Source: Paramecium tetraurelia (Eukaryota > Ciliophora > Oligohymenophorea > Peniculida > Parameciidae). Taken from it: a stretch of 64,000 nt of DNA. The notes under the pieces are model-generated. The model worked only from the letters and a program-made list of their open reading frames with translations. It had not been told where the DNA came from and searched no databases. A program made the translations under genes and the position numbers. Numbering within the stretch: position 1 is the first letter of the stretch; each line of letters begins with the position of its first letter. The DNA lies in NCBI RefSeq assembly GCF_000165425.1, contig NW_001798995.1, positions 62,001 to 126,000 on the forward strand. Direction: 5' to 3'. Positions 16,492 to 49,572 of the stretch are shown here, piece by piece.

Positions 16492-16507
16492 AGTTTATTT
16501 TACAATA

Positions 16508-18358: not shown

Positions 18359-18407
18359 CAATTTATGATTACAACATTAATATATAATAACAATAAAAAA
18401 AATAAAA

Positions 18408-21576: not shown

Positions 21577-21624
21577 TATGATTAATTAATTGATTGCATT
21601 ATCAAAGAAATATATAGAAGTCTA

Positions 21625-23199: not shown

Positions 23200-23327
23200 T
23201 TTAAGATTGACTGCTTAAATTACAATAATTACTTATTGGATGGCTTTAATCTCAAGTATACTTCAAATTGAGATTTCATATGCAGTTAAAAATTATATAT
23301 ATTTATATATATATACATATTTAAGTA

Positions 23328-24709
23328 TCAACTAGATATTCTCGTTTTAGAGATGACTCTTTTGAGAATGCTCAAATCTTTGTCTGAAATTTCATAGATC
23401 TCCTTGATGTTTTACCTACATAAAAAGCATTCCTTATTCTTCTAGGCCATTTAAATCGCACACTAATAGCAGATTCCTCCATGACCACAAGTCATGAGGA
23501 CAGCATTTGGAGGTCTTTCGCAACAAATGATGCATTTGCAATCAGATTGTTGTTGAGGGTCTTAAGATTTTAAAACGATTTTATTATTATTCGTATTTCG
23601 TTCAGTATCAATTTCATTTTGATTAGTACATTTTAATATGACTATTTCAGGATCTTTGATCTATTTGAAATAGGCTGATGAAAATTTCTGTAAGAATATC
23701 TATGTTTTGGTTGGTTCTTTTTTGATCCTCTAATCCTGACATGGAGTATTGGGTGATGAATCTCGAGATTCCAATTGATTTAATGACAATGCAAATTCTA
23801 CGATGTCTTTAAAAAGGTATTTGGAGATTGCACTAAACATCACAATGTTAAAAGAAATCAGTATGTACATAATGCAATCTCCAATCTTCAGATCCAAGTC
23901 AACGTCTAAAATATTGAGAGTGTTGATTATCCAAGTCCCAGCGATTAGACTACTTAGAATGCTAGTGTATAGGGTCCATATCAATGTTTTAACTTGGTTT
24001 AAAATCAAACATACCTTCACTTTTATAATTGAGAATTTCTTAGCGATTATAAATGCTGAATAGTTTTGAGATGAGGATCAATAGAATTGTGATGGTCGTT
24101 CCAACTAGGCCGCTTAGAAACATCCAGTACCACCAGAAGGTTTGTGCCCATGACCAATTCACGTAGGAACTCAATTTCAAGGTGATACACAATACGGAGA
24201 CTATTAAGCAAAAGCGATAAAATATGATCGTCTAAGTTTATGCGTTTTCTAACATACCAATCTAATTATTGTGGAGTGTTCATATTAGTCTTCTGAAGTC
24301 TTGTTGCATCCTATATTAACTATGAAGGATAGAATCAAAAAGGTGTTGCAGAAGATGTAATAATTTAGCCCTAAATAATATATGGTTATGACGTAGATCT
24401 AAAAGAAGTTGATGGTTATGGGTTACTTGAAGCAGGATGTGAAATAGATGATCGAATTTCTTTTGTGTCTTTCCTTCAGTGCATTTCAACAGCATCACCA
24501 ATTCATACAGTATTGTCAATAACAGGGGCAGTGCCATGGGAGCACTTTGATACTGGAATAGAGTGAACAGAAGAACAAATATGTTGTAGTAGAGGTATTT
24601 GAAACAAAAGCACTTTAAAGTGAATTCCACAACATCTCTTTATAGGTATAAATCATTGTTTACTTTTACATATTTTCACTATTGTTAATTAATTTAAATT
24701 ATCAAACAT
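23328..24709 (-). CDS. polytopic membrane protein with C-terminal RING finger (probable E3 ligase)
   Basis: Predicted about 424 aa. Introns at 23993-24014 (22 nt), 24232-24257 (26), 24474-24498 (25) and, less certainly, 24636-24669 (34). About seven or eight hydrophobic helices come first (YYNIFVLLFTLF, FCLIVSVLCITL, WMFLSGLVGTTITILLILI, CIMYILISFNIVMF). A polar linker and a C-terminal RING-HC finger follow: CIICCERPPNAVLMTCGHGG, then CYQC, then CFLC. The CGHGG spacing resembles membrane RING ligases with multiple helices. The 5' end is unresolved. The model start at 24709 overlaps the ATG of the divergent coiled-coil gene (24708), which is unlikely to be real, and the 25-nt intron begins with an unusual GTGATG. 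The RING and TM content is firm; the start is not. Confidence 0.75.
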
Positions 24710-25541
24710 GAATTAATATGTGCGCATCAAACCTGTGTTTGCAACATTCTATCCAGACCAATGCAGGAATCATTCGAAGGAAAATAGGGTGAGTTCCGGA
24801 TATGCTCAAAGCAGAATGGAAGAGAAATCATAATCAGTCGATAAATTTAAAAATCAAGTGATCCAATTGCAAACTTAACAGAACGATTTGAACGAGCATA
24901 TGCAAATGCAAATTGGCAAACTAATGGAGAGGATGAATAATGCAGAACAACATATTGCAAGGATCTATGAGAGTGGATGGATGGATGCCATCAATATAGT
25001 TTAGGAGGACATGCACAAATTGCAAATGCAACTCCAGAGCGTCTAATAAATGATCGTTGTTGAAGAAGAGAAGTCACAGCAATTCTACCTAGAACAAATC
25101 AATCAAATGAAATACACAGTATTAGATTAAATTAATAGTATGGATTCAGAAATCAATGTCAAGATGGAAGATCTAAGAATTAAATTGGAGGAATACAACC
25201 AAGAATTCAAATTGAAATTGGTTGAAAACAATGACATTGACAAATACTAACGATTCAATGAAGAAATGTCAATATATCTAAAAAATAATAATAACTAAAA
25301 TCTCACTCTCTCACCCAAATACAAAAGCAGATCATAAAAACTATCCTTACCCTAAATAAACGAATTAGATGACTCCTAATAACTCCAATCCTTTTAATTT
25401 TTGCAGTCTCAATCCCTCCAATATTAATTAGACAATGAAGGTTACTTGTTACTAAATGGAGAATACATATACGATAGTGTTGGAAATAAACAATAGTTGT
25501 CAAATGATTAAATAAAATATCTAAATTTAATACCAAAATGA
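24708..25541 (+). CDS. coiled-coil protein, unknown function
   Basis: Intronless, 277 aa, TGA at 25539-25541. It starts MNQYVRIKPVFATFYPDQ. Residues 40-200 form a strong coiled coil rich in Gln, Met and Glu (KLMERMNNAEQHIARIYES, QINSMDSEINVKMEDLRIKL). The last 80 residues are Ser/Gln/Leu-rich and probably disordered, ending YLNLIPK. No motif identifies a family. Such proteins are common in ciliate cortical and basal-body fibres, but that assignment would be a guess. Its 3' end nearly touches that of the Ca2+-ATPase gene (16 bp, convergent). Confidence 0.8.
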
Positions 25542-25557
25542 TGCATATTAAATATAT

Positions 25558-28500
25558 TCATATCTTTTATGAACTCATCTTTTATAGACTCCCCCCCTCG
25601 ACTTTACTTCTTTAACTAGTATGCAAACGCATTGTTGACTTCCTCCTTAATCTACTCGTCAGAGTATCATCCATCTTATCTGTCTTGATCTCATCTTCCC
25701 TGAAAAGATGAATCTTTTGACATATGCTCTCAGGTATAAATTTGAATAGCAATGAAAAAACTATTCCAAATACTCCAAATCCGAAACACAGTAGATGCTA
25801 AGACGATGTCAGATGTGACACCTTCACATATCTACCACCATATTGAATTAGTAATATCTAAACTATCACTGTAATTGTTTAAACGATCCAAAACAATGGG
25901 TTATTACAAAAATTTGAAAAGGGGTTTTTTGTATGATAATCTAATTGTCTGCATGAAATCGAATTGAACACTTGCATCAAAACAAACGCTTAGAAAAATA
26001 TGCTCATTTGCACTACATTCGAAGGGTACTTATGATAAATGAGCAATTCTTACTTTCAAACCAACAAGTTCTGGTGGCATAGAACAATCTACGTAGTTTG
26101 GTAACAAGAATAGAATAAAGGAAAGTATAGTTATTTAATAGACACTAGCTCCTACGATGGTTCTGTACATAGTTGGGGAAACTATTTGATCTGTTCTTCT
26201 ATACGGTAGTCTTGACAACACTGTTATTGATGGAGGTTCTGTAGCCAAAGCCAAGGATGCAAAGGTGTCCATAATTAAATTGACCCATAGCATTTCGATT
26301 GCATTTAAGGGAGATTACTTTAATATCACAGCACCTGTAAATGACATGAATAGTGCCACCAAATTGACAGTTAATTAAAATTAAATAAACTTCCTTATGC
26401 AATCATAGATGTTTCTACCCCATATCATAGCTAATTACACTCATTAATAAATATACCTGTAAGAATTGAATTGAAGTTATCATCAATAAGGATGATATCT
26501 GCAGCATCCTTGGCAACATCAGATCCAGTAATTCCCATAGCAAATCCGACATCAGCTTTCTTTAAAGCAGGTGCATCATTAGTACCATCTCCTGTAACAG
26601 CCACAACATTGCCTTCCTCAATTAACCCAGTAACTAATAGGTATTTATCTTCCGGGGATGCTCTTGCCATAACCCTCATTTCTCTACTGATTTTGGAGAA
26701 GATCTGCATATTTTTAATTTTCTTAATTTCCTTACCTTCATCATCCTTAACAGTCATCAACCCTCCAACCAATTCTCTAAATTTTTTGCCTTCAATTACC
26801 TCAAATTCCTATTGAGCTCTGCCTTACTCCAAAATGCCACACTCCTTGGCTATGGATTATGCAGTAATGATATTATCTCCTGTAACCATTCTCACAACCA
26901 CTCCAGATTAATTGCATAATTTGATTGCATTTGGAACATCTGCTCTAATGGGATCCTTTATACCACAAATAGCAATTAATGTTAAATCCTTATCTAAATC
27001 ATCTTCTGGAATTTGATGAATATGTGCCTTCATATTTACTGTAGAACCTTTAAAACTAGAACTCTGAGGTTCAAAATCTCTGTAAGCTATGGCTATTGTT
27101 CTTAAACATTGAGAAGCATATTGTTCAATTACATTGTGTAGAATGTCATCCTTTTTTGCTTTATCAAGTAACATTTCATTTCCCCCTTTTGAAACATATT
27201 TGAAACATTATGCCAATATGATTTCTGAAGCCCCTTTTGTAAATATTCTAACAGTCTAATTCTTTTAATTGAGAACAGCAGTGCTCATCTTCTTTCTTTT
27301 GCTACTGAAAGGTATTTACCTGAGTATCTTGTCATTTTGTCTATAATTGGCATACTTGAACCCAAAGAGATCAGCTAATTCAATCAAGGCACACTCTGTT
27401 TTATTTCCAATTTGTATCCATCTATTGCTATTTTTATCTTTGGTTGGATTTGCATTCGAATTATAGCAAATAGATTCAGCCATTATTTCTACTGTTTGTT
27501 TTGATAGCAAATTATTATTCGAAGTCAATTAGTCCTTAAGAATGAAACTATTTTCACTCCAAATAGTAGTGACTGACATGACATTTTAAGTTAGTGTCCC
27601 TGTCTTATCACTACAAATATTATTGGCTCCTCCCATAGTTTCACAAGATGCAAGATTCTTTACTAGATTTTATTCATCCTTCATCTTTCCTACTGAATAG
27701 GCCAAAGCTATAGTCACAGCAAGTGGCAATCCTTCAGGCACTGCAACTACTATGATGGTTACTCCAATCATAAATGCATCGATGATAAATGAGAATGTTT
27801 TCAAGGTCAAGAAATCATGTTTATGTAATACAAAGACATCATAGATTAGATGTCCCATCAATGCTATAAATGTTAGGATGGCTACCAATGTTCCCAATTT
27901 ACCAATATCTTCAGCCACCCCCTCCAATTTTTGTTGGAGTGGTGTTGGAGGATTATCTTAGTTTAACAATAATTTCAACTGTCCTTAAACTGTATTTTAT
28001 CCAACCTACAATACTAGCATGTAACCATTCCCATCTAGACATTTAGTACCACTGATCAAAAAGGGACTACAATGATGACTGTCTAATGGTAATTTTGATT
28101 GTTGAATCATCTCACTAAAGGGTAACTTTTTTATCTCATCAGACTCGCCGGTCATTGCAGATTCATCCACTTTCACTGAAGATCCCTGGATCATTAATCC
28201 TTTAGTTATTGTTATTGTTCATACCATCCACTGCGAACATGTCTCCGATCCCAAATTAGAGAACATCGCCTACTACTATGTCCTTTATTGATATCTCCAC
28301 TATTCCTCCTCTTACTACTTATACTATTCCCTCATCCAACCTTCTACGCAATTACTAAAATTGTCTTTCTTTTAAATAATTATTACCAGCTGTTATTGAA
28401 ACTATCAAAAACACAGCAAAAAATATTGTTGCACTAAATAACTATTAACCAATTTTACATACCCCTCTGTCCATCCAGTTGCCACGCCTTCATTTACCAT

Positions 28501-28873
28501 TCCAATTATCGTACTCACAAAAGCTGCCAACAATAAAATTTAAAGCATTGTATCTCCGAAGCACTCCAAAATTAAATCACATAAGGATTCCGACTCCTTC
28601 TCAATCGGGTCATTGTTACCGTATTTCTCCCGGTTCTCTATCACTTAGGCTTCCGAATCAATCCCTTTCTGTCTTTATTAATCAATTGCGTATACCAACT
28701 AATTGGATTTCAATTGTTTTGCCAAACCTTGGTCTCCTCCCCATTTCTACACCCTCTGCAGACTGGATCCATCATTTATTGATGTCAACTAGAACTAAGT
28801 CCTTGAAGTCTTCAATCCCACGCATTTATTCGTAATCCTGGGAGTCCTACTATTTTGAATATTGGTGTTTCAT
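25558..28873 (-). CDS. plasma-membrane-type Ca2+-ATPase (P-type IIB)
   Basis: About 1069 aa from ATG 28873 to TGA 25558-25560. Introns: 28434-28462 (29 nt), 28200-28224 (25), 26431-26456 (26), 26029-26053 (25). Seen in order: N-terminal [13 protein letters not shown]-domain TGES in [17 protein letters not shown]4 [15 protein letters not shown] with the Ca2+-site Glu, phosphorylation site DKTGTLTQN (Asp about residue 404), nucleotide-domain KGASEI, hinge [17 protein letters not shown], and the TM5-6 segment [18 protein letters not shown]. The basic C-tail ([11 protein letters not shown]) is where calmodulin binds in this family. It pumps Ca2+ out of the cytosol, in Paramecium at the plasma membrane or alveolar sacs. 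One extra base (A on the coding strand, 28775-28777) shifts the frame after residue 32; removing it restores an exact frame through [14 protein letters not shown]. Confidence 0.92.
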
Positions 28874-28912
28874 ATAATAATAATAATATATTAACGAATT
28901 TTCAAATTACTC

Positions 28913-30943
28913 ATGGACTTATCATAAAAGAATCCTCCCATCCGAGAAGTCAACTCGAACAGTGCATCCAAAGGGTACTCCAGCAATAAGTCTTAATTCC
29001 AATCCACCTTCAAATATCAATATCCAATCGAGAGTTAGTATTATCCGATATATTCGAAGAAAAGAATGAGCATGAATAATCAATCAATTCTGAGCAATCT
29101 CTCTCCTCCATCCAAGAAGTAAACCCCAGAAATGATAGATCCCAATATGACGAAGAATCTTAAATGTTCAATTACAACTATGATTAGATCGTCAATCAAA
29201 ATCAAAGATTAGAAAGTCAAAATATTAGTCTTTAAGCTCCCATCAATCAACAATAGATCGATCTACAAACCATTCAAGACTAAGAACCCATCTAAAAGGG
29301 CCCAAGCCCAATCAAACAACAATAACAATAATAATAACTTTAGCCATCTCGCTCACAATCACAAGTCTTCTAGCCTTTCCAACCCTATCAACAACAACAA
29401 ATATCAGCCTCCAAAAGCAGAATAGACAGATCATTCGATGGAATCTCCGTCTTTACTAATGTCTCCAAATAGCGAACAACTCCCAATAGTCGCAATAAGG
29501 CCAATACCTTTTACTATGATAGAATAGGGAATCAAGTCAGCGAAATTATGCCCCCCATGATTGACAACTATTTAACGTATGTTCTCCTTCAAACAGCACT
29601 ACCTTTATTAATAGTGTTCATTCTATATGTCATAAATTAGTATGAGTTATCTTTAAATCAAGCTTCTTACAGCGAGCAATCGACCAATTTTGCTACCTAC
29701 CAGAATAGTATTGCACTTGCAATGGTTTCGGAGCTAAACTATGGTCCTGGGCTCGACAACTCATAGTAATTTAAATCAATATCAAATTAGATGTGGAAAT
29801 TAGGTTTGATCGTATATCGAAAGTAGTTCTTATGCAGATTGGCTATGGGCTCAAGCAATTTGAAACATAAAGAACCAGTTACAGAATACATTTTCTTGTT
29901 TTTGTTCACAATTATCTTTGATTTCATTCTCGTTATCTGGATAGAAAATAATTAGGACTATGTTTATGTGATATTAGTTTATTGCATAGGAGTTGTAGTC
30001 TTATTGAATACATTTAGAGTAAAAGATTGGGATATAGTTTTTAAAAAAGGGGCAGGAGTGTTTTTATATGACTTTGCTTTACTCATTCTAATGGTGTTCA
30101 TTTATTATGCTATTCCTAATGTTGTGGAATCACTCCAAGATCGCTAGGGTAGAATATCGGGAATGCAGAGTTTCCTATACCTTTATCCCTTATTCGATTG
30201 GATTATGGAAATGTTCATGGATTACATTTACAACTAGAGTTAGTTTGCTGAATTGTATATCTATCAACTCCAATTAATTATTCTTGGCATGAAAATAGGG
30301 TATTTTGTATAGTTTATAATAGAATTTTAAACATTGTGGATATTTGGACATTTGAGTTTTGGTACAATATTTTATTGCTTGGAATTATGAGGGCTAACAA
30401 TTCCTCCATGTTTCTTACAGTTTTTCTTAGAAGATGGGTTTTCTACTTAATTCCAGATTTACAATTCATTACTAAAATGAGTGAAACCAAGAAATCCTTG
30501 AAGGGAAAACATGGTGCTTATTTAGAACATCTATTTTGGATTGTTTTCTATTACTTTTTCTATTTAACCAATTCTAGTGTGCCTTATGTTGCTAAGAAAA
30601 CGGTTTTTATAAGCAATTGTTAATTTGACAATGAGATTTGGAACTTCACGAGAGAGTATTATTAACCAATTGTTATTTGGGGTTTGTTGCTCATTGCTGA
30701 GATTGCTGGAATCATGTTGAATAAATAGAAGTATGAAATGTTGTTTTGATTTCTTTTAGAAAATATGATAACATTAAATATGAGGGTGGTTGTAAATTCA
30801 ATTTGATAGGAAATGTGTTCATACGATTGTCAGGTTATTACTTTTTTTAGATTGCTGTAATGATCCCATTCCTCTTTAAATCATTAAATGATATTAGTTA
30901 AATAAATTAGCATCTGGAAACAAAAGATACAGAATAGTATTGA
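28913..30943 (+). CDS. polytopic membrane protein, unknown family
   Basis: Predicted 650 aa with introns at 29034-29059 (26 nt), 30300-30322 (23) and 30731-30759 (29); the coding length is then a multiple of three. Residues 1-200 are disordered and rich in Ser, Asn, Gln and Pro, with a run of glutamines (QQQQQQQ) at about 29310-29345. At least seven hydrophobic helices follow: LLQTALPLLIVFILYVI, YIFLFLFTIIFDFILVIWI, VILVYCIGVVVLLNTF, FLYDFALLILMVFIYYAI, then a re-entrant-looking region, HLFWIVFYYFFYL, PIVIWGLLLIAEIAGIML and YYFFQIAVMIPFLF. No catalytic or pore signature was recognised. It diverges from the Ca2+-ATPase gene, with starts 40 bp apart, so the promoter region is shared. Confidence 0.8.
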
Positions 30944-31692
30944 TTTTTATCGTATATATATAAGTGCCCAATTCATTTATTAAAACTAAATATTTATTTA
31001 AATAAGAATAAAAGATTAATAAAATATGGATGAAAAAATATCTTTCTGAGAGTGGAAAAGTCATATTAAAATTTGGATACATTTTGAGGGATTGTTATTT
31101 AGTATGCAACAACGAATAATAATATTTGTTGTAAATTTAAGAGAAGTTATTAGATTCATCTAATGATTGATCAATTCAAAGGGGGATTCTCGTTTTAATC
31201 GAGTGAGTTTGCGAAAGGCAAAAAAGGAATTTGTTTAAAGTTATTCGAATGGGGGGGAATGAACTTTCTGGGAGAGAAATCGTGGTTCATTACTCAAAAT
31301 AAAAATTTTTATTCTTTTATTAATTAGAAAAAACTAAAATTTATAATTTTTTATCTGTTATAAAATTTTTCAAAAATTTAAATCTCATAATCAAATAAAT
31401 GGGAAGGGCTGTGTTTCACTTAATAAAAATTAATACCCACACAGAGTACTAACCTTAAATATAGGGAATTATAATTTTTTATTGAAAATTAAAAAAATGA
31501 TAATTCATGATTATCATCAATGATCTTCTTATCATGCTTATCAATATTTATTATGTTGTATTGGGTAAAAATAGCCACCTCATCGATGCTATATGATCGC
31601 TTTTGATTTTTAAAATTCCGTGTTAATATCTAGTATGTGTTTTGAATAAATTTAATGTTATTAACAAAATTTTGTTTATTAGAGCGCCATCG
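30944..31692. other. non-coding stretch with a G-rich island
   Basis: No protein-like frame. A G-rich island with several inverted repeats lies at 31149-31291 and is annotated separately. A second short inverted repeat, CTGTGT..ACACAG at about 31410-31445, follows. Confidence 0.45.
31149..31291 (+). ncRNA. candidate structured RNA (unassigned)
   Basis: Three hairpins lie in a row within about 145 nt: ATTAGAT-TC-ATCTAAT at 31149-31164, CTCG..CGAG at 31189-31203, and AATGAAC..GTTCATT at 31258-31291, which encloses an inner TTTCT-GGGAG-AGAAA stem. The stretch has runs of five and seven G, unusual in this AT-rich gap, and is followed by T-rich DNA (TTTTTATTCTTTT at about 31307). It does not fold like a tRNA and I could not match it to snRNA, SRP, RNase P or telomerase RNA motifs. 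The strand is arbitrary. Confidence 0.28.
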
Positions 31693-32764
31693 ATGCAATA
31701 ACAAGTTATTAATTCCTTAATTTTCTAGACTCAGGAAAAATGCATTAGACAATTGTTCATTCCACACTGTGCAAGTAGAAGTGATCAAAAAAGTCAATCT
31801 GTATAAGATGACGGCTCTAAAAAAACTTTGTTAAGACTTGCAGACCAAGATGTACCGTCTTCAATAGGATTTGTGATGACAAATTTAAATAGACAGGATT
31901 CATGCTCATAGTCTTAGTTAGAATAATAAGAAAACGATTTCTAATAATAGAGTATTAACAAAAAGAAAGGTAAAAAATTTGCCATATTTTATTATTATTT
32001 CTGTAGAAAGAAAAAAACATCACAGCCTCAAATATTTAAGTCGCTAGGTTCACAGTCTTGTCGGATCGCAAAGAGAAACCACCTATAAACAGATGGCAGA
32101 CTTGCTTGCTTCAGAAATAAGTAAATCAAGTTTATCTGTAAATATATTAATTAAATTTTTATATTTTCTAGTCAGAAAGTAAAAACCTCAAACGCAGAGT
32201 TTATGATTCCATTAATGTAATGGTTGCTCTAGGAGTCCTAGAAAAGCAGAAAAAGATCATCACAAAAGGATCGATGTTTCAATAGAATCATATGACGAGT
32301 AGATACGCCAGAGATACCAGAGACAGATATGAAATTTTGAGAGTACACTTTATCAATATACATTAGCAATAACAATTTGATGAACTCAAGAGAAAGAAGA
32401 TCTTATTTTAAAAATTGACCGATTAGGCAAAAAGAATAAATGCCTTAATCGATCAAAACAAGTATCATACTTAAACAATATCCACATTAGACGTCTCTAA
32501 AAAGACGAGTCAGACTTCCTACAAGGTCAATAACTTAAAATATATCAATTCCCGATTATGATATTCAAGTTACCTTAAAATGCAAAAGTATTAGAATTAA
32601 TTATACAATAGCTTAATATCATACCTACAGAAGGGAAATCTTAGGTCTAAATTTTGTCAGATCATGAAATTAAAATTGTTGGGGATTATGATATTTTGCC
32701 TTTAATCAAAAGAATTGAAGAAGCAAAAGATAACATAATTCCTGGACCAATGTTGAATTTATGA
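31693..32764 (+). CDS. DP-like transcription factor (E2F partner)
   Basis: Predicted 323 aa; introns 31970-32006 (37 nt), 32138-32171 (34) and 32462-32490 (29), all longer than the local norm, give an exact frame. The DNA-binding winged-helix core spans the first two introns: SLKYLSRQVHSLVG, TTYKQMADLLASEIS, then NLKRRVYDSINVMVALGVLE. The RRVYDxxNVxxA pattern is that of DP proteins; E2F proteins have RRIYDxxNVLEG. A dimerisation coil (about 190-250) and a DP-type C-terminal domain (FPIMIFKLPQ, then HEIKIVGDYDILPLI) follow. DP factors pair with E2F to control S-phase genes; that role is family knowledge. The start is the first ATG after upstream stops in this frame and lies close behind a non-coding stretch. 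Confidence 0.88.
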
Positions 32765-33265
32765 TAAACTAATAAAGAAAATTTTGCCATCATTTTCTTA
32801 CTAAAACCATAATTGTCCATTTATTAGGACTATTAGCACAACTATATGTTTTTTTTTTAAATTTTAATTAAGCGGGAAAATTTTATTTTAAAAAAAAGTG
32901 CAATAATTATTATTAATCAATCATTATGTTACATATTAGGTAGTTCTTTAATGAATTCATTATAGAGATAGACCTCTTGAATTATTTTCAATATCTTTAA
33001 TCTATTGATCAAATAGAATAGAAAAACAACCCCTTTCATAATAACTTAAGCAAAACAGTGATTCCAATATTATTTCAAGTATATAAACTTCAATCAAATT
33101 TTTAAATACTTTCTATTAAATAATAAAATTTCGTTTATATTTTCTTAATGTTTTTCAATATAACTTAAAGCATTTAATTCTTTTCAGGTCTCTCTTAAGG
33201 TCTTTATTTTTTATATAAATGAATTTGAGGAGATTTTGTGATATTAATTTTTATATAATAATCAC
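32765..33265. other. intergenic region
   Basis: About 500 bp, AT-rich, with the long poly-T tract at 32849-32856. No coding frame or structure was noticed. Confidence 0.5.
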
Positions 33266-34851
33266 ATGTAAAAATAATTTGAAGGATAAAATGACATAGA
33301 AGATTACTTCATAGAAATTGAACAGGTTTAAAGCGATGTAAATTTTAATAATAAAATGCATCAGAATGTCAATCCATACGACATTAAATGTCCAATTTGT
33401 TTAAATGTATATTTGGATCCAATATCATGTGACTCGTGTATGAATCATTTTTGCAAGAGATGCCACTAATAGAAATAAGTAAGTATATAATGATAATGAG
33501 AAAGAGTATGAAATGCCCTTTATGCAATCGGCAAGTTGAAACAAGAAAAGCATTTCCTCTATTGAGATAATTGTTGAGTTAGTTAAAAATTAAATGTCAT
33601 CATTTTGAATAAGGTTAGATATTAATTCTGATTTTAGGTTGTCGAGAAATAACTGATTATGATTCTTATGATAAGCATGTGAAATAGTGTGATTTTAGTG
33701 AGGAAATTTGTGGATTGATGGATGGTAAATTATAATGTAATGTGGTCAAATTTAAGAAGGATATATAAAGACATAGAATTTATGAATGTAGTTATCGATA
33801 ATGTGAATGTTGTCACTGCCATAAATTAGTAATTTATACATATTAAGAATTCTATTAGTTTAGCAATTTTAAATTATAGACACATGAGCTCAAATGTGAT
33901 GAGGCTCTTACCAGATGTCCAAAATGTCATATATAAATTAAGATAAAGGATCAATCTAGCCATCTTCAGATATGTGATCAGAACATAGATAATTGCACTC
34001 ATTGCAGAGGAGAATATTCATTATAGCAATTGTTAATACACTAAAATGAATGTCCATTAAGACCAATTTGTTGTGTTGGATGTTCATAAAGTTTTACTCT
34101 CAGTGTTTACTACATTCATTAAACAAAATGTCCAAAATTTCCATAAATATGTCCTAATTGTAATAAAAAAATTATCAGGGAACAATTTTAGAATCACACA
34201 TTCAATGATTGTTTGATCTACATCAAAACATCGCATGAGAAAGATATATAAAATCTAATTAAAAAGCAATAAATGCTCGAAATTGAATTAACCAAAAATG
34301 ATAAAATAATAAAGTAAAGAAAAATTGGATTTTAGGTTCTCCAATCGATTTAAAGATCCGGAAATCTTTCTAAATTTAAATAAGACAGTTGCTTTTGTTA
34401 AGAACATAGCAACTAAAAAGAGAGATAGATTTGTTCTATTTAAAAATCCCATTTCAGAATTAAGAAAACAATGGAAATTCAAGTATTTATTTAATTTATA
34501 GCTAGATGCAAACAAGTCAAAAGTTCATGGTATGCTGTCGGTATAACAGAATTATCCACTTTGCATTCTCTAAAAAGATATTAAGATATAGGACATGGAT
34601 CCTATCTAGTGTCTTCAAATGGAACAATGTATAATAATCACAAGGATGATCAGAATTCAAAAGAAAGTGATTTTTCAATCAATACAAATGATATTATTGT
34701 TATAAATGTCGATTTCGAGGCAGGTCTATTGGAAATAATTAATACAACTTAAAATTTATCACTTGAAATAGAGGCAGATTTTGAAGGAAAAGAATTTTTT
34801 GGATGTGCTTGTTTAAGAACTGCAGGAGATGAGATTTAAATAATTTAATGA
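33266..34851 (+). CDS. RING, TRAF-type zinc-finger and SPRY-like protein
   Basis: Predicted 511 aa; introns 33479-33504 (26 nt) and 33614-33637 (24). Residues 40-95 are a RING finger: CPICLNVYLDP, CDSCMNHFCKRCH, CPLCNRQV. TRAF-type zinc fingers follow to about residue 320 (CPKCHIQIKIKDQSSHLQIC, CTHCRGEYSLQQLLIHQNEC, CPNCNKKIIREQFQNH). The last 120 residues look like a SPRY/B30.2 fold (SSWYAVGITEL, GHGSYLVSSNGTMYNNH, DIIVINVDFEAGLLEIIN). The combination suggests an adaptor or ubiquitin ligase whose SPRY domain binds a target; catalysis is inferred from the family. RING plus TRAF fingers are abundant in ciliates. It is followed 89 bp downstream by the PH-like gene on the same strand. Confidence 0.85.
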
Positions 34852-34940
34852 TTTTATATTATAGAATTAAGCTAAAATTTTAGTCAGAATAGTTAAAACA
34901 ATTATAATTTAAATGAATCCATTAAGAAATAACTAAATTG

Positions 34941-38058: not shown

Positions 38059-41000
38059 ATGTTTATCAGCACTCTATCGACTATGCTATTAATGCTTTTG
38101 ACCAATTCATCAGAAGGTTAAAAATGAGTAGTATATTTTAGCAATGATGGATGCAACAATGGATTCAACAACCGATGCAGTTGTAATTCTTGCTGTTTCT
38201 ACAGTTTTAGGTAAAGAAAACTCTACTCCTACAGGTTCCATAGTGGGAGGCACAACATTATACATGAAAGTAATAATATCATATAAGAATTATAGGTTTA
38301 AGGATTAGATTAAACAGCTAGTAACAATGCTGTATATATTGGAAAGTATCCTTGTATTATTTCCGATAAGGGAGTCAACGGATTGTTCATGAACTGTAAA
38401 ACAACAAAACCAGATCCAGATGACAATAACTTATCTAGCTTAGAAATTGTTGTTAAGGTATCAGGTAAACCAGACTCTGTTTGTACATTTAGTGGTCCAT
38501 AATGTCATTTCACATACTCTTAATACTATACACCAAAATTATTTTATGTGACTCCAAGGATCAAATTATCCAAGAACATTAAGTTATTGGAGGAGCCCAA
38601 GTGGGCTGTATCTAGCTCAGTTGTTTAATTACTAGAGGGACAATTCATGGGAGCTAACAGATGTGACAGATTCACAGTTCAAGATCAAGTATCCAGATGA
38701 GATCAATTTCTGGGATGATCAAGTTGTATGTCAGGTTTCAGCTGAAATCAAAGCTGGTTACTATGATTATACTATTAAATCATAAAGTGGATATCAAACT
38801 AATGACGTAGGAGTTAAATAAAAAAGAGTTTAATCTGACAGAACATACGACTCAAAGTATTTATATAATTAATATTTTTCAGAGTTCTTCCAATTATTAC
38901 AGAGATTAATACAAATTTCGCATCGCCAGAAGGATAAATTATCGAAATATCTGGATATGGATTTAGTCCAATCCCATCTGAGAACACAGTTAAAATTTCA
39001 GGCTAAGCTGAAACTATTTAAGTGTTATCATCAACCCCAACTACAATCAATGCCAAAATACCAAAACTAACTAATTTACCTACTCTTGCTGATGCTACTG
39101 AGAGTTCTGTTTTCATCTAAGGAAGTGGATTACATTATACTAGATGGGATGTTTCTGGATTAAATTTGAATTGTGCTTCATTTAGAACATAAATCATTAC
39201 TAACAAAGCTTAATTAAACAGTAGAATTTAATTTGATGGTATTTATCCAGAACCTGATGTCTAAAATTAATTTGGAGAATATTATGGATAATACTTTAGA
39301 GGTTTCTTAAAAGCACCATTCACTGGAAATTATAGATTCTATGTTGCTTCAGATGACTGTGCTTAATTCTTTATTTAAACAGCTTAAGTTAAATAACCAA
39401 TTAGACCAGATACTGCAACAGCTGCAAGTGGATGGAATCCTTATAGAAACTATTGGTATGAATATTTGACTTATTCCTATAACATCAAATCTATATCTGA
39501 AACTGTTGCTTTATAATAAGGAGAATTTTATTACATTGAAGCTTATGATCTCAAATGGAGCATCAGGCGGATATCTTACACTTTCTATGGAAGTTGAGAG
39601 TGCTACTAGAAAATCGAACTCACTAAATAGTGTCTATGAAATTTCAACATCTTACACACCAGTTAAAGAAGTGATTGAAATCACTTTATATAATTCTGTT
39701 GGAAATACTTTATTAGCAGGTAAGTATTAACTTTAATTCACTTATGGCACTAAGACTACACCACAAACTACTTTATTTTACTCATACACTACTGGAGATA
39801 TTGTACCAAATGCCAATGCAAATGCTATTAAGAATGCAATCTAAAATTGTGGAGCAGGTTATTTAGTAACTGTTATAGCTACTAAGTTAGATAATACTGG
39901 AGTTGCTTTAGATGACACTGCAACAACGTTTGCTGGATATAAATATACAATTACATTTGATTCTCATAGAGGTACGACCAATTATAGAGCACTTCCAAAG
40001 TTTGTATCATTCTCTTTAAATGGAGGAACTCCTGTTAAAGATATTGTAAGAACTCAAGAACCACTTGATCCAATCAGTGGAACATTCTAGTTAACAATGA
40101 CTATTAATGGAATTGACAATTTATTCTAAGTGTCTGCTAATGTTTATGATTTACCTTTTGATGCATCAACATCATTGATTGCTGATAATGTTGAAAGAAT
40201 TACTGGAGAAAGACCATTTGTTTGGACAGTTGGAAGAGCATAAGATGGATGGAAATGGTTCGTTGTTTTAAGATCTAATGTTGATTAATTAACTGATTTT
40301 TCAGTTTCAACCAATGTTCTTGTTTCAGGAAATGGAGATGTAACTGCTGCTGTTACTAAACCCATACCAGATAGTACTAATTTATTATTTGAACCTATAC
40401 CAAATGAAATACTCTTTACTTATAGTTAACACCCTTAAGTTTAAGTTGAAGTTTAATACCAAATAAAAGAAAATAATGTTGTTGTAGAAACAGAATAAAT
40501 TTTAGCTGGTTGCGAATAATTTGAAGCATGTGATTTCACTTTAAGTGATGAAAAGACACCAACATTAACAGCTTACTCTGTTAGCGGATCTCAATTATCA
40601 TTAACTCTAGCACAAGGAGCTGGTTTATCAATAACTAAGACAGACTTAGATATTTCATTTGAAGGAGCTGATTGCACAAATATTCAATTCTCCACCTTCA
40701 CATCACCTTACTCAATCACTTGTACTTTAGAATAATTGAATTCATAAAACATTAAGGAAACTGGTGATAATTAAGTGCCAGCTATACATCATAAAGCTAT
40801 TGGTTTCTCTAAAGTTGAAGCAGGAGTAACTGGAGAAAATGTTGGTTTGGTTATATCTTCAATTTTACCAGCAACAGGTTCACCAGATGGAGGTACAACT
40901 ATTACTATTACTGGTACTGGATTCCCTAAAAATCTAAATAGAGATTTTACATTCTAAATTGATGGCTAAGATGTTCATCCATTATCAATTACTAATACCT

Positions 41001-44000
41001 AGATTATTTTTGTTACACCAAAGAAAGCAAGTGGGGGAACTGGAGCAATTTCTTTCTCATACAATTAAAAAACAGTCACTAGTAGCTTATTTTCATACGA
41101 TGATGCTTTAAGAATCTAAGTGTAATCCTTAGAATTCAATTCAAAAACTCCAGTATTCAAAGGTGAAATGACAATCACAGGAACCAATTTCGGAACTGTT
41201 GTTGATGATATCAAAGTTACTTTAGTTGGATCTAAATCTTATAATGCTAAAGTTATTTCTGTGACAGATACTTCAATTCAAGTATATTTAAGAGGAGGAA
41301 TGCCCTGGTGACTATAGAAGTTACTATTACTAGAAAAAATTATGGTAATTCATATGCCAATTCGAATGATAACTTATTTAAATATATCATTCCAGTCACT
41401 AGTGTTACCTTGGAAGATGGCACTAGCTAAGCAAAAGGATCAGAGGCAGGAGGAACAGTTATTAAAATAACAGGATCTAACTTTGTTTTGGGAGAAACTA
41501 TTGTATTTGTTGGTTAAGCTGTTAATTGGATCTGTGAAATTGATGAAACTAGATTCACAAGTGAAGTCATTTATTGCTCTGTTCCACCAAAATGTGAATA
41601 CTATAACTAATAAGCTTAGTTAGTTGTTGTAACAGTACAAGTAACTCTTGAATCAACATGTCTTGATACCACAAATAATTGCTTATTTACTTATGATAAT
41701 ACATTAAATCCAACAATTGAAAACTATCCAGAATCCAGCACTTAATATACAGGATCAAGAATTTTGACAGAGTCTGATCATTAAAAACCAGATTATTAAA
41801 AATTAGTCTAAAGAAAGAGATTTTTATGGACAGATGAATCAAAGAAATAAGGCATCAATCACATTTTAAACCTTGGTAAATCACCAAGAAGAGATATGTT
41901 GTCATCTGCTGATTTAGTTTTAAGTTAATAAAAGACTTATGCCCCAGGAGATACAGAAACCTTAACTGGAACAGGATTAACAGATACAGTTTTTATTGTT
42001 TTCAAAGGTCCAGTTACCTAAAAAGTAACTGCAACAATTTCTGGATCATCATTCACTTACACAATTCCAAATTTACCTTAGGGCTAATATAAAACTTATG
42101 TTTTAACTAAGAATGGTTATGCAGATAAGATTTGGGTTACTGTAATTGGATTAAGCATAACATCCATTGATACTGCTGTTATTGGTGGATAAATATTGAC
42201 AATTAACGGAGTTGGATTTAATGCGGATTAATCTGCAAGTGTAAAAGTAGGAACAACAGACTGTACTGAACTATAAGTAGTCTCAACTGTTTAAATTAAA
42301 TGTAGACTGGCTAGACAATCAGCCACATCTGCAGCAGTAACACTCTCACAATTACCTTCTGAAAATAATTCAGCAGTTCCTATTACAGCAACATTTACTT
42401 TGACTATAAGCCCATCTACTAGCTCTCCATTATTCACAGCAATTACCGGTGCCTCCTATGACTCTACCCAAAAGGCTTACTTAGCTACAGCAGGAAATGT
42501 TGTTCTTGTATTCGCTGGTAGTAGACTTACCGGCACTACACTTGTAGTCACATTAGAACATATGGGTCATAAGATAGCTGGAACTTCTTCAGCTTTATCT
42601 GATACCTCAGTAACAGCTACCTTTTCAAATTTAGCTGCAGGAGTTTATTCAATTAATTTATTAGTTGATAATAAATATGCATACATCAGTGATGTTACTA
42701 AATAAAAATTAATTGTTAGTGCTGCTGCACCAACTTCTACTAATCCATAAGTATCCTATGCTGGTGGTGCAACTGTTACATTTACAGGAACCGGTTTCGA
42801 TACAGTAAATGAATAAAATTCAGTCAAACTGTGCGGATTTGATTGCCCAATTACAAGTGCAACATACACAACACTTTCATGCGAAACTCCAAAATTATTG
42901 ACATCATCAGTTTTAAGTTAATATACTGCTTTATCAGAACCTGCAAGATATATTAAACCATCAGAAGTCACATTATTAGCTGATTCAACAACCTCAGTTT
43001 CTAAATTCTTTGATTTACTCTAATCAACTTATTATACTTCTAGTGCTGCTTCAAATTGTTATGTCTAAGTTGACTTTGGATCAAGTAGAATTTTGAAATT
43101 ACATTAATTAAGATACATGCCAAGAATAGACAAATAAGCAATTTTATTGAAAGATGCAGTGTTCTAATATACAACTGATGGCACTAATTGGTAGACTTTG
43201 TTAACTGTTGATTAAACAGTGCATACAGGTTGGAACATTTACGTTCCTTAAACTGATATCTCAGGAATCAAAGCAGTTAGATTGTTTGATTCAAGAGGAT
43301 CAACTGGATCATCATGCTAATTAGCTGAAATTGAATTGAAAGGTTGGATATTGTCAAATAGTAATAATGCATACTCAGTTCCAACTTCATGTAATGCAGA
43401 AATCTCAGTAAATGGTTAATCTCTTGGTACAGTATCAAATGCTGTTAGTTACTCCTCATCTAGTGTTCCTATTGTTAATGCTGTCAGTCCAGCTACAGGT
43501 AGATTTACAGAAGAAGCAGTTATTACAATTACTGGTACTGGATTTGTAAATGGATAAACTAACAGTAACCATAGATGGAGTCACATGTGCAATTTAGAGT
43601 GTTTCAACAACCTAAATTGTCTGTAAAACTGGAGTCAAAGATCTAGAATAAACTCAATTAAATGGAGTATTTTAAGTTAGAGTTAATGGAAATTTAGCAG
43701 TTAATAACAAATAATTCATTTATGCAACCAAATGGTCAGATATCAATACTTGGGGTGGGTATGAATATCCAGGTGATGGAGATTCAGTTATTGTTAATGC
43801 TGGATAAACTTTGATTGTTGATGTTAAAACTCCTAAGATGATGCAAGTCTTAGTTGAAGGAACACTTACATTCTCTGATGAAGTAGATACATCTTTGGAT
43901 GCTCATTTTATTGTTATTAGAGAAGGAAAATTCAATATAGGAACAGAATTAGTGGCTCATTAACACAATGTATAGATTACCCTATATGGAGTTGAAGAAG

Positions 44001-47000
44001 ATACTTAAATGCCTGCTATGGGTAACAAAGTTTTGGGATGCCATCAATGTTAATTAACTATTCATGGTAAAGAAAGAACTCCAACTTGGACATTATTATC
44101 AAGTACAGCATCAGTTGGAGCAACTCAAATTACAGTAGATGATGCAGTAGACTGGTAAGTTGGAGAATAAATTGTTATTACTTCCAGTGAAGTTGAACAC
44201 ATGCAAAGTGAAAAAAGATACATTACAGCAGTTAGTGCTGATAAAAAGACTTTAACTCTTGATTAACCACTTACTTATAAACATTATTCAGATGTTGAAA
44301 CATTTGAAACAGATTCATTCCCTATGAAGGTTGAAGTTGGTTTATTGACTAGAAATATTGTTATTCAAGGTGAATAATCAGAATTGAAATATGGTTATCA
44401 TTTGATGATTCATGGAAGAGCTGAGAAAGGATCAGTTGGTAAAATATCATATGCAGAATTCAGATATGGTGGTTAACCAAGAATTATTGGTAGATATCCT
44501 GTCCATTTCCACTTGAATGGAGAAGTAGATGAATCATATGTTGTTGGTAATGCTATTCATGATTGTTATGCTCGTTGTTTGACTATTCATGGTGTTCATT
44601 ATTTGAAGGTTTAGAAGAATGTATGCTATAATACTTTTGGACATGCCATATTTCTTTGAAGATGGTATTGAAACAAATAATGTTGTTGAAGATAATCTTG
44701 TTGCAAGTACCAAATAAAGTTGGATCATGTTACAAACAGATATTACTGTGGCTACTTATTGGGTTACAAATCCATAAAATATTTTAAGAAGAAATAGATC
44801 TGGAGGTTCAGAATGGTATGGATTTTGGTATGAAATTAAAACCAATCCAGATGGTCCATCAGCTACTTCAGATATTTGTCCTCCAGGATTAAACATCCTT
44901 GAGTTTAAGGATAATTGGTCACATTCAAATGGTAGATTTGGTCTTCGTATCTTCTAAATGGCACCAAGAAAGTTCCCTTGTAACGATCCTGCTAATTGGG
45001 TCAATGATTAACCATACATTGATAATCCAAGTCTTTAAGCCGTTTTTGAAAAATTCTATACATGGAAAAATAATGAATGTGGTATTTTAGGGGAAGAATT
45101 GGGTAACATCTACTTCAAGGACATTATGATTGCTGATTCCAAATTTGCCGGTTTCTAAGCTCATAAAGGTAACTTCTCAACTGAAGGAGCAGTCTTGGAT
45201 AATGCAGTAATCATTGGTAAATCAAATCATAATGCAAATCCAGATGATACTTACTATGATGGATCAAGAGCAATGGTAGTTCCAAGAACAAATGGATTTT
45301 TAGCTAAAAATATCAGAATTTATAATTATGGAAGTAATACTGCTTTAATTGAATCATGCTCTGTATGTTGGAATGTTAAATTATGGGTATAAGGAGGCAA
45401 AAATACATAATTCTTTAATGTCAAAGCATATCATTCTGATACAGCTAATCGTATCTTTTGGTAGAAACATAGAAGAGAAATCTTCTGGGATTAAGATGGT
45501 TCAATTTCAGGAGTGTCAGGAGGTGCCTATATTATCCCATATAAGAAGCATATTGATGGAATTCCAGGATGTGTTAATCATCCAGAAGATTTTTGGGATA
45601 ATTCTATCATTTGTGCTATGAATTAAGTCACAATAAGAGATGTTTTGGTTAATAATCCTACTCCAGAACAAGATTTCACAGGAGTTGATATGAAATTATA
45701 TAGATTGGACAGTACTAATATTGCACTCAAAATGGATGCTAATATTGACGAGAGCAAATTCATAGAAGGAGAAACAATGAAAATTATAAAGAAAAGTCAT
45801 GATGTTAAATAATCATTTGCAAGTATATTTGCAACTGGTTTCACTTATAATGTCCATTTCAAATTTGGAGCAAGTGATCCATTAAGCATGGGTATCTTTG
45901 CGTCTCCATACTTCAACTAAAATGATGATGCTGTTATTCTTAGATTTAATTACTCTGCCAATAGGGAAACATTTGATATCATGAGAAACATTGGAGGAAA
46001 ATTCCCAGTAAATTACACAAAATTGGAATAGATTCCAAATACTAAGACTTGTAATTAAGGTGATTGGTTTAATGATAGAACAAACAAACTATTCTTCCTT
46101 TGCTTGTCTGGTAAGAATAAGAAGTAATATGAATATGTTGAAGTCAGAGGAGTTATTTGCAGAGAAGAATGCGATAGTTTAGGAGATGTACCATAAGAAG
46201 ATGGATATAGATATTGGAGTGATCCTGCTACTTGGATAGATAACAAAGTACCAGTTGAAGGAGATAGTCCAATTGTATAAGCAGCATATTAAGTTATCTT
46301 AGATGTTGATCCTCCTAAACTTGTTAATTTAACTATTTTGGGATCTTTAATTTTTGATGAGAAAAGAGCATCAACTAAGTTAGAAGCAGAGAGAATCTGG
46401 GTTAGATCAGGAAAATTATTGGCTGGTAATTCAACTAATCCATTCCCTGGAAAGATTAACATTGTATTGAATGGAGAATTTGGAGATAATCCATTAGTAA
46501 TTGATGCTAATCTTGATGTTGGTAATAAAGTACTTGCTGTAACAAGAGCTATGGAATTATACTCAAAGCCACCTGGAACAGTATGGACTAGATTAGCTGC
46601 ATATGCTGATGCTGGTGCAACCACTATTACTGTAGCTGAATGTGCTGATTGGGCCGTTGGTGATGAAATAGTATTTGGTCCATCAGGTAGTGACCCTGAA
46701 TAAAGAGAGAAGAGATCAATAGCAGCCATTTCTGGATGTGTTATAACATTAAATCAAGCCCTTGAATTTGATCACTATGGAGCTCCATCAGTAACTATTG
46801 ATAAACCTGGAATTGGACAATTAGATATGAGAGCAGTTGTTGGACATTTAACTAGAAAGATTAAGATTGAAGGAGGACCTAGTGTTCATGGTTTAGGATG
46901 TAGAGTCTTGATTTATCAATTCGAAGAACCAGAAGCTAATTTAGGATTCCCAAGAAGAGGATACACTGTTTTACATGGTGTAGAATTTAACAATTGTGGT

Positions 47001-49572
47001 CAATATGATACTTAAAGAAGTGGGTTAGATTTTAGAAATCTTAATAGTGAGATCATTAAGACTCCAAGTGAAGTTATTGGTTGCTCATTCCATGATACTA
47101 CAGGTATGTTGATGACAATCTAAAATTCTTAATACATTACAATCAAGAATAACATATTCTTTACTGGTATCAAGGCTTTGGTTTAGATCAATAACAGTTA
47201 ATATGTGAAATTCTAAAATAATGCTTTGATTTATGTCAAAAAGAGAATATTAAACGAAGGAGGTATTGCAAATTGGGCAGTATTTGGTAACTTTGTTTAC
47301 ATGGATGAATTAGTACCAACTTAAATGACAAGAGATGTTGTTGATGTATCTGGAAATGTCGGATAAGGATCATAAGATACAGGTTTCTTCGTGATGGCAA
47401 GTAGATGTTCAGATGCATATTAATCATCATTCTATAATAATCATTGTTCAGGATCTGTGTTGGCTTGTTTTGGAGTCAGATAAGACCCAGAAGGAAAGTG
47501 CACATACATATAAGGATTATCTGCATATCATAGTGGAGTAGGTATAATGTACGCAGTTTTTGCAGAGGAATTACGTTTGGAGAAAGCATTGGCTGCTGAA
47601 AACGACGTAGGTATTGTCTTAAGAGGTGCTCCTTAAAGCATTTAAGACAATTAGATGAAGTTTTCAAATAGTTTTGTGAGTGCATTTGTGAGACCAGAAT
47701 GTCCTAAGTGTTATTCTGCAACTTTGAATCCTTATTGCAGTAATGTCTATGGAGTTAAGATGGGTACATTATCTTCAACTGCTTTCCCTCCTATTTCGAC
47801 TAAACCTTCAGACAATTTTGATTCTCTTTGCACCATTCAAAGAGTTGATCTAAGAGTTTATGTCAATAATGTAGAATTCAATAATTTCAGATTATCTCAT
47901 GACTCTGCTCCTAGATGTGGTAAAAATGCAGTATTCAAGACAAATCACAAGGCACATGATTCTACAGGATAGCACTATTTGGTTAATTCACCTTGTACCA
48001 ACTGTGAATTTGATTCCATTCTTTATTAGATGAGAGATTCTGATTGGTCTAAATTAGGATGGTTCGGAGGATGTGGTTCATTTGAATGCACAGGTCAGAA
48101 AAATGTCTTGGTTGAAGATCAAACAGGTCACTTCTTTGGACAAATTGGGTAGGCCATAACCAATAATACATACTTTGGACCAAACGTAACTCATTGTATT
48201 AGAAAGAACACTTGGAATGGATATTGGTGCCCTGATAGAAAGATTACAGTTTTGAGTTTTATGAGTGTCGCAGCTGATTACAACAAGAGACTGTATTCTC
48301 CAATCAAGTTGACTGATGGATTATTCTTCAATGAGATTAATAGTTTCTTTGAATGGAATTGGGATGGACCGGAACCTTTGAATTTGAGAGAATCTAAATT
48401 CGTAGCCTTGGTGTCAGCCAATACAGTTATTAATATGAGCAATGCAGGTATGAACCCAACTGCATCTGAATATTGGCTATCAAAAAGAAGTGAGGCTGGA
48501 AGTCCTGAAGATTACGTAATTTTGAAATGGCAGTTTTCAGTGCCTTAAATTGTTCAGGTATAGGTTGGCAATAAAGTCATATTGCCTGGATTGACCACAA
48601 ATTCTAAACATCATGATTTATTGACTATGACTGACTAATGTGGAGCCAATAACTACTTCTTTGAAAATAGAACTATTCATTTTGTAGTCAATGCAAAACT
48701 TGGATGCAAAGTTAAGATTTCACTTAAGAATACACTCCAAGTTTCAACAAGACTAGAAATAACAACAGATGAATTCTTTGGTGATAAATTCTTGCAATAC
48801 GCAAAAGCTCAATTAGGCGGAGATCCTTATAATTACTTTATTATTGGAACCAAGAAATCAACTAGAAGATTTTTGGATGAAAGCGTCAGCTAATAAGTTA
48901 CCGTTGATTGGGGAATAGTTGATAGTGCTGAAATTGGAACAGAAGCATCCTCTAATTCTTAGTAGGTTCTTTCAGAATTAGCCAGCAAATTAGAATCCTT
49001 CAATCCTCCCCCTGAAATTGGTACAGTGTTAGAACAATCAACCACAATCACTGCTATTAACAAATTAAACTTCGCAAGCACTGAAGTTACATCATGTATT
49101 TTTATTAATCATAATTTTATTAGTGACTCCAACCTCTCCTAGTGATGGTACCAATACAAACAATGGAAGCAATAATAATAATGGAAATAGTGACAATAGC
49201 AACAACAATGGTAACACTGGATCAACAGGTGGAAATACTAACAATAACTCCACTTAATCTGATAATACAGAAATTGTATTGACTACTGATGAAGGTGTTA
49301 ATCAATAGGATCTTAGCGATAATATCGATAGCAATACATCAGGAACAATTCAAAAAGCTATCAAAAAGACTGAATCATCATCTTCCACAGTGATCATTGT
49401 TGTTTCAGTAATCTGTTCAGTAATTGGCGTTTCACTCCTTATCTCAGGATTGTTATATTACAAGAAGGTTAAATTAGCCAAATTGATGGCTGCTAGAGCC
49501 CAAAAGGTAGATAATGAATTCTTCAAAGTGAACATCACTGAACAATAACTACAACACTAACAACAAGAATGA
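38059..49572 (+). CDS. giant fibrocystin-L-like membrane protein, plus copy (frame broken by single-base insertions)
   Basis: Second copy of the gene at 2367-13881. Introns at the same four places: 38117-38141 (25 nt), 38270-38295 (26), 38857-38882 (26), 49096-49123 (28). Domains match: signal peptide (MFISTLSTMLLMLLT), PA14-like at about 39220-39540, IPT/TIG repeats to about 42890, a discoidin-like segment at about 42960-43350, G8 at about 43730-44050 with PbH1 to about 45700, second G8 at about 46200-46700 with PbH1 beyond, Asn-rich linker at about 49140-49260, TM helix at about 49390-49460. Compared with the minus copy there are nine extra single bases: 38558-9, about 38591, 38599-600, 38687-8, 39553-5, 41303-5, 41317-8, 43561-2 and 44651-3. 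As written, translation stops at TGA 38698-38700. Removing them restores 3800 codons. Pseudogene and consensus error are both possible. Confidence 0.85.
38518..47520 (+). repeat. near-identical arm of a long inverted repeat (plus copy)
   Basis: Mate of 4435-13430. Left edge: identity begins at CTCTTAATACTATACACC; before it the copies differ at many positions. Right edge: identity ends after AAGGATTAT at 47520. The intron inside the tract (38857-38882) is identical to its partner at 13069-13094, while the three introns outside differ. Confidence 0.8.

What the first reader, a model, noticed from the sequence alone, without database searches (positions are those of the whole stretch)
38518..47520. 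Sharp-edged homogenised tract between two inverted giant genes
Seen: the two fibrocystin-L-like genes are almost identical from 38518 to 47520 (mate 4435-13430). Over 121 codons at 46338-46703 I find a single amino-acid difference. Outside the tract, a 98-residue segment at 48252-48548 differs from 3407-3703 at eight positions. The intron inside the tract is identical in both copies; the three outside differ in sequence. Inference: gene conversion or a recent partial replacement overwrote the middle of an older duplicate pair.
Basis: partly seen in the sequence, partly recalled or inferred. Interest (0 to 1): 0.75.

Follow-up and report, generated by a model that had tools for sequence, protein, structure and literature searches.

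The report
Gene conversion between two giant paralogs
In a Paramecium-like ciliate, a 9,000-base stretch of one giant gene was copied over the matching stretch of an older, inverted sister gene about 24,000 bases away, leaving both ends of the recipient gene as they were; the process is already known, and this is a clear, directional example of it.

Summary
Gene B (38059-49572, +) and gene A (2367-13881, -) differ by 2.9% over about 9.1 kb and by 33-47% outside; the 5' outside value includes non-coding sequence. The drop is at silent sites (pS 0.077 in the tract, 0.71 in the 3' flank), so selection on the protein does not explain it. A collinear copy of A on contig C165 (C2) gives direction: A-C2 divergence has no step at the edges, B-C2 does. 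So A was donor, B recipient. Trees conflict between tract and 3' flank. The spacer is collinear with C165, so there was no net inversion. Since then A and B have diverged under constraint (dN/dS 0.16). Small patches and shoulders of intermediate divergence suggest, without proving, more than one episode. B keeps its own two ends but carries A's TIG/G8 region. Gene conversion between duplicates is reported as widespread in Paramecium, so this is a new case of a known kind. Unresolved: A, B and C2 carry single-base insertions and no single-base deletion in the main frame, most likely consensus errors; they weaken trust in fine detail, less so in the tract.

The parts
2367..13881 (-). Gene A (donor): giant TIG/G8/beta-helix gene with four short introns
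   Evidence: script gene model 2367-13787; ATG placed by eye from the translation; introns read; Pfam TIG, G8, CEMIP_beta-hel
38059..49572 (+). Gene B (recipient): inverted paralog of A, same architecture
   Evidence: script gene model 38150-49572; ATG placed by eye; Pfam
38518..47520 (+). Converted tract in B
   Evidence: 2.9% mismatch to A inside against 33-47% outside; AU tests
4435..13430 (-). Donor stretch in A
   Evidence: same alignments; A-C2 divergence has no step at the edges
38857..38882 (+). 26-nt intron inside the tract, identical to A 13069-13094, different in C2 and C1
38349..38478 (+). 5' shoulder: A-B 16/129 mismatches, B-C2 13/129, A-C1 19/129; weak sign of an older conversion layer
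38478..38516 (+). Patch at the 5' edge where B keeps C1-like states (A-B 11/29 plus a 9-base gap)
44912..45084 (+). Internal patch with 8 of the tract's 37 sites where B=C1 and A=C2: probably unconverted B
47225..47270 (+). Patch near the 3' edge with 5 of the same 37 sites: probably unconverted B
47454..47523 (+). 3' shoulder: A-B 10/69, B-C2 11/69, each of the three to C1 19-25/66
47524..49572 (+). Unconverted 3' part of B, ending with one hydrophobic segment and a short tail
   Evidence: pS A-B 0.71; hydrophobic segment read by eye
16232..34884 (.). Spacer between A and B: five blocks collinear and same-strand with C165:322015-332606 (no net inversion)

Best explanation
A and B are old inverted paralogs of a fibrocystin-L-like family. 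About 9 kb of A was copied, without net crossover, over the matching part of B (ectopic, non-reciprocal gene conversion). SHOWN by sequence: local silent-site homogenisation, topology switch, A as donor and B as recipient, no net inversion, constrained divergence of both copies since. INFERRED: that it happened in the micronuclear germline; that it was synthesis-dependent repair of a break in B using A as template; that an earlier conversion near the A/C2 duplication had homogenised a slightly longer tract (shoulders and patches); and that the edges fall where A-B similarity collapses. The product is a chimeric B with A's TIG/G8 region and its own two ends.
For: Silent sites: A-B pS is 0.077 in the tract and 0.71 in the 3' flank, whereas A-C2 is 0.416 and 0.315, so the tract's silent sites are free to change. 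Direction: B-C2 pS is 0.408 in the tract and 0.716 outside; A-C2 shows no such change. Topology: the tract supports (A,B), four alternatives are 117-202 lnL worse, p-AU at most 2.3e-4; the 3' flank rejects (A,B), p-AU 0.002. Scan: A-B fragment score 1832 against null maximum 242. One intron identical inside, three different outside. Spacer collinear with C165. Two real loci: about 150 silent and 87 amino-acid changes between the A and B tracts, dN/dS 0.16; of 236 differing sites, the 108 that both outgroups polarise fall 60 to A and 48 to B.
Against: No reads, germline sequence or sister-species orthologue could be examined. Frames of A, B and C2 are broken by single-base insertions, which suggests imperfect consensus in just these genes; fine mosaic detail and one stretch without mismatch at polymorphic sites (B 43777-44278) could be cross-filled. 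Evidence for an older layer is uneven: the Fisher test gives p 0.04 at the 5' shoulder and 0.15 at the 3' shoulder, with shoulder limits chosen after looking. The yardstick is not clean: A-C2 is uneven too, with a scan p of about 0.001 and a drop to 3.3% some 400 columns beyond the 3' edge. All six pairs pass the permissive scan. B's place against C1 in the flank is not resolved. Codon and tree tests cover the 3' flank only.
Confidence: 0.87

Rival explanations
1. Assembly artefact: B's true middle is missing and reads or a consensus of A, or of an allele of A, were placed there.
For: Insertion-only frame breaks in A, B and C2, a stretch without mismatch at polymorphic sites, a run of N and a repeated stretch elsewhere in the assembly.
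Against: The two middles differ by about 237 coding changes with dN/dS 0.16, split 60 to 48 between lineages among 108 polarised sites. A 601-base piece of the tract finds only two copies at 96% or more in the genome. Joins would have to be in register at both ends, where A-B divergence rises steeply, and the edges are mosaic.
Confidence: 0.07
2. Purifying selection alone keeps the middle similar.
For: The TIG and G8 matches found lie in the middle.
Against: Silent sites and an intron are alike too; over the same codons A-C2 pS is 0.416 and A-C1 0.616.
Confidence: 0.01
3. Reciprocal exchange, or conversion from B to A.
For: None found; inverted repeats can recombine reciprocally.
Against: Either would make A jump away from C2 inside the tract; it does not. 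The spacer is not inverted relative to C165.
Confidence: 0.02
4. Recurrent concerted evolution rather than one event: the core has been converted repeatedly with nearly the same end points. This is a refinement of the best explanation, not exclusive of it.
For: Shoulders at 12-14% A-B divergence, between core and flank: pooled 26/198 against 81/251 in the flanks, p 2e-6; against the core p 8e-11, the core count being entered as a rounded 230 of 8640. This is about the A-C2 level. Probable unconverted patches. Slightly uneven third-position divergence along the core, p 0.044.
Against: Shoulders are short (129 and 69 columns), their limits were set after looking, and the 5' one lies where all copies are alike. 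Patches were picked because they diverge. Fisher tests on informative sites give only p 0.04 and 0.15.
Confidence: 0.45

Closest known systems
Gene conversion between whole-genome-duplication paralogs in Paramecium (PMC10195154, PMC11334263, PMC5485702; passages seen)
   Same: Silent-site homogenisation between duplicates in the same kind of genome; the passages call it common, widespread or frequent
   Different: Here donor and recipient are old inverted paralogs on one contig about 24 kb apart, not the collinear pair, and the tract lies inside one gene with both ends spared. GC3 of the tract is not raised (0.173 in A and B, 0.216 in C2, 0.233 in C1), unlike the GC rise described in PMC5485702
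Ectopic gene conversion between paralogs in animals (PMC3966223, PMC3924832; search listing only)
   Same: Non-reciprocal transfer between duplicated genes
   Different: Ciliate genome; tract lengths not compared
Fibrocystin-L (PKHD1L1) family (PMC13424714; passages seen)
   Same: TIG repeats, two G8 domains, beta-helix region; one hydrophobic segment near the end and a short tail, by eye. That this set marks fibrocystin-L is recalled
   Different: Six genes in this genome; orthology to the animal gene not tested

Membership tests
Ectopic gene conversion tract | Locally raised identity at silent sites beyond chance | tested here: met
   pS 0.077 against 0.71; scan score 1832 against null maximum 242, though all six pairs pass the permissive scan
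Ectopic gene conversion tract | Conflicting trees inside and outside the tract | tested here: met
   AU tests for tract and 3' flank; 5' flank not tested
Ectopic gene conversion tract | Non-reciprocal: donor unchanged | tested here: met
   A-C2 has no step at the edges, B-C2 does
Ectopic gene conversion tract | No net crossover (no inversion of the spacer) | tested here: met
   five blocks between A and B collinear with C165
Ectopic gene conversion tract | Joins present in single molecules and in the germline | not testable with these tools
   no reads or micronuclear sequence
Conversion between Paramecium WGD paralogs | Partners are the two members of a duplicated collinear pair | tested here: not met
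   A's collinear partner is C2 on C165, not B; that the pair stems from a whole-genome duplication is inferred
Fibrocystin-L (PKHD1L1)-like protein | TIG repeats plus two G8 domains plus beta-helix | tested here: met
Fibrocystin-L (PKHD1L1)-like protein | Signal peptide and single transmembrane segment | tested here: inconclusive
   hydrophobic ends read by eye from translations; no predictor run
Fibrocystin-L (PKHD1L1)-like protein | Orthology to animal PKHD1L1 | not tested
   no animal sequences compared
Paramecium nuclear genome | TAA/TAG read as Gln, introns of about 25 nt, mixed TTTGGG/TTGGGG telomere ends | tested here: met
   introns of 23-28 bp are in PMC11334263; the telomere type and that the set points to Paramecium are recalled

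The most novel reading that the evidence does not exclude
The single-base insertions that break the frames of A, B and C2 are real and tolerated: ribosomes shift +1, perhaps at the TGA that soon follows, so that these giant genes still make full proteins in a ciliate with TGA as its only stop. Fitting facts: 21 insertions counted and no single-base deletion in the main frame; no aligned-frame TGA before the last intron; dN/dS 0.16 between A and B; 8 of 21 insertions within three codons of the next TGA, 15% expected, p 0.008, a threshold chosen after looking and driven by six neighbouring cases in C2. Against: three long paralog frames have none, insertions cluster, some lie tens of codons from any TGA, none is shared between copies, and of six frame breaks read in other genes one is a deletion and one complex.
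Probability: 0.03. Interest if true: 0.85.

Novelty: new member of a known kind. Interest (0 to 1): 0.38.

Why it matters
[quoted passage not shown] This pair gives a readable case: a 9 kb tract, a direction, no net crossover, mosaic edges, and a yardstick copy in the same genome. It also shows how conversion can build a chimeric gene whose middle is shared and whose ends are private, and it warns that dS-based dating of such paralogs is unreliable.

Tried and rejected
Selection alone was rejected (silent sites and an intron are alike). Reciprocal exchange and B-to-A transfer were rejected. Long-standing pseudogenes were considered: dN/dS is 0.16 in the tract and no aligned-frame TGA was listed before the last intron in A, B or C2; the few listed beyond it lie where the reference frame no longer applies. 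So neither copy has been free of constraint for long; recent loss of function is not excluded. Per lineage, codons with one difference give 64 silent and 19 amino-acid changes for A, 52 and 28 for B.

A gene-finder script with frame-shift states called only nine genes and could not measure the genome-wide rate of frame breaks. Its own directions (10 of +1, 4 of -1 in all; three and three in C2) disagree with the alignment, which I trust more. Searches for HSP70 (46 matches) and a dynein motor domain (59 matches) showed some split frames. I fetched seven such loci and one intact one and read six by eye, mostly against recalled conserved motifs: four look like insertions, one a deletion, one complex. 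One dynein break seemed shared by two contigs, but these are identical over the 400 columns printed and count as one.

No sister-species comparison was possible: the genome is stated to have no relatives in the collection. The rows listed by six paper searches (12 to 20 rows each, of up to 1,019 papers) showed nothing on conversion in ciliate G8/TIG genes. McGrath et al. 2014 (PMC4125410) is not held. For PMC10195154, PMC13059789, PMC9788069, PMC13424714, PMC11334263, PMC6027866, PMC3464196 and PMC5485702 I saw passages; no paper was read whole.
Full report
WHAT IT IS. The window is C42:62001-126000 of a 69 Mb genome in 231 contigs. Reading TAA and TAG as glutamine opens long frames, introns are about 25 nt and one contig end carries mixed TTTGGG/TTGGGG repeats. 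Together these point to Paramecium (partly recalled). A whole-genome search lists 12 G8 domains, two in each of six genes: A and B here, C1 and C2 on contig C165, one on C11, one on C203.

THE OBSERVATION. A and B form one long inverted match. A fit with two breakpoints, sought in limited ranges around those edges, gives 2.9% inside and 46.9% and 32.6% outside, 1263 log units better than an even rate; the 5' figure includes non-coding sequence. A GENECONV-type scan gives a fragment at B 38521-47453 with score 1832 against a null maximum of 242. All six pairs among A, B, C1 and C2 pass that scan when mismatches are allowed, at 1.2 to 2.6 times the null maximum for the other five, so the size of the A-B signal matters and not its p value.

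WHY CONVERSION. The identity is at silent sites: A-B pS is 0.077 in the tract and 0.71 in the 3' flank. The same silent sites are not frozen: A-C2 pS is 0.416 in the tract. Protein trees differ. Of five topologies tested on each part, the tract supports (A,B) and the other four are 117-202 log units worse; in the 3' flank (A,B) and (B,C2) are rejected and A pairs with C2. B's exact place in the flank, beside C1 or outside it, is not resolved. The 5' flank was compared by mismatch counts only.

DIRECTION. C42 and C165:300-342k are collinear where compared, and C2 is the partner of A by position; that this is a whole-genome-duplication pair is inferred. In 300-column bins A-C2 mismatch is about 6-20% along the tract and 3-16% through most of the 3' flank. 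It has no step at the edge, though it falls to 3.3% in the bin some 400 columns further on. B-C2 is 20-46% in the 3' flank and equals A-C2 inside the tract. So A's tract is original and B's was replaced. The five blocks found between A and B lie in the same order and orientation as on C165, so there was no net inversion, which a single crossover between inverted copies would have caused. B has no counterpart at the collinear place on C165: 14.7 kb here against 2.8 kb there.

AFTERWARDS. Over sites worth 2,865 codons A and B now differ by about 150 silent and 87 amino-acid changes (dN/dS 0.16). Of 236 differing sites, 108 can be polarised with C2 and C1 agreeing: 60 changed in A, 48 in B. dS 0.081 is about 13% of the A-C2 value 0.606. 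With published rates of 1.94 to 2.44e-11 per site per division (passages) this is of the order of 2e9 cell divisions: recent only relative to the duplication.

MOSAIC STRUCTURE. Within the tract there are 37 sites where B agrees with C1 and A with C2, against 28 of the opposite kind; 8 of the 37 lie in B 44912-45084 and 5 in B 47225-47270. These look like patches left unconverted. Just outside the core, B 38349-38478 and 47454-47523 show A-B divergence of 12-14%, between core and flank and about the A-C2 level (pooled tests, limits set after looking and core count rounded). The simplest reading is an older, slightly longer conversion near the time of the A/C2 split, overlain by the main one. 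Support is moderate: informative-site tests give p 0.04 (5') and 0.15 (3'). One stretch without mismatch at polymorphic sites (B 43777-44278) may be a later small conversion or cross-filling in assembly; third-position divergence along the core is only weakly uneven (p 0.044).

WHAT THE GENE BECAME. The TIG and G8 matches found lie in the tract; the first part of B, 38059-39505, was not scanned with Pfam. The start of B, with a hydrophobic stretch, and roughly its last 670 codons, with a single hydrophobic segment and a short tail, were not converted (hydrophobic stretches judged by eye). So B is a chimera with A's TIG/G8 region.

A CAVEAT THAT MATTERS. In the main frame up to the last intron, A has 4, B 5 and C2 11 single-base insertions; one more in B near the 5' edge makes the 21 examined, and B has further small insertions there. 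None is shared and no single-base deletion is listed; C2 also has one four-base deletion. The main frames of C1 (3533 codons), the C11 copy (3452) and the C203 copy (3371) are open. Of the 21 inserted bases, 15 equal a neighbour; none falls in the 3' flank, although A and C2 are most alike there. I think consensus errors the most likely cause, but the last point does not fit a simple look-alike explanation. They do not create the tract, which rests on about 237 coding differences and on silent-site contrasts, but they lower confidence in fine detail.

KNOWN OR NEW. Conversion between duplicates in Paramecium is described as common, widespread or frequent (PMC10195154, PMC11334263, PMC5485702; passages). 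Here the partners are inverted old paralogs on one contig rather than the collinear pair, and the tract is within a gene. GC3 is not raised in the tract, although polarised changes since conversion run 48 to 19 toward GC in A and B together. I file it as a new member of a known kind.

Noticed in passing
window 4435-13430 and 38518-47520; C165:308-320k: Main frames of A, B and C2 broken by single-base insertions (21 examined) with no single-base deletion listed, while long frames of C1 and the C11 and C203 copies are open; 8 of 21 within three codons of the next TGA (15% expected, p 0.008, post hoc).
   Followed up: partly
window 49662-54793 (-): A gene with IFT122/IFT140/IFT172-type TPR and beta-propeller Pfam hits next to B is 94% identical to its C165 partner, against 69-89% for the other collinear blocks, with internal peaks of divergence: probably a second, mosaic conversion between the two contigs.
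   Followed up: partly
window 34884-49613 against C165:332606-335453: Gene B has no counterpart at the collinear position on C165: 14.7 kb here against 2.8 kb there, with only short weak matches.
   Followed up: partly
L029 and L030 (C131, C225): Identical over the 400 columns printed, on two contigs, and a run of N in C225: the assembly holds redundant pieces and gaps.
   Followed up: no
L029 and L032-L036 (C131, C25, C157, C201, C167, C217): Split frames in some dynein and HSP70 genes; of six loci read by eye, four look like insertions, one a deletion, one complex with an in-frame TGA.
   Followed up: partly
window 2695-2765: Low-complexity, Asn-rich stretch before the last hydrophobic segment of A matches a repeat at C165:347748-347933.
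   Followed up: no
A 2553-6276 against C165:308828-312559: A and C2 are more alike in the 3' third of the gene than elsewhere (permutation p about 0.001): perhaps partial conversion between the two contigs.
   Followed up: no
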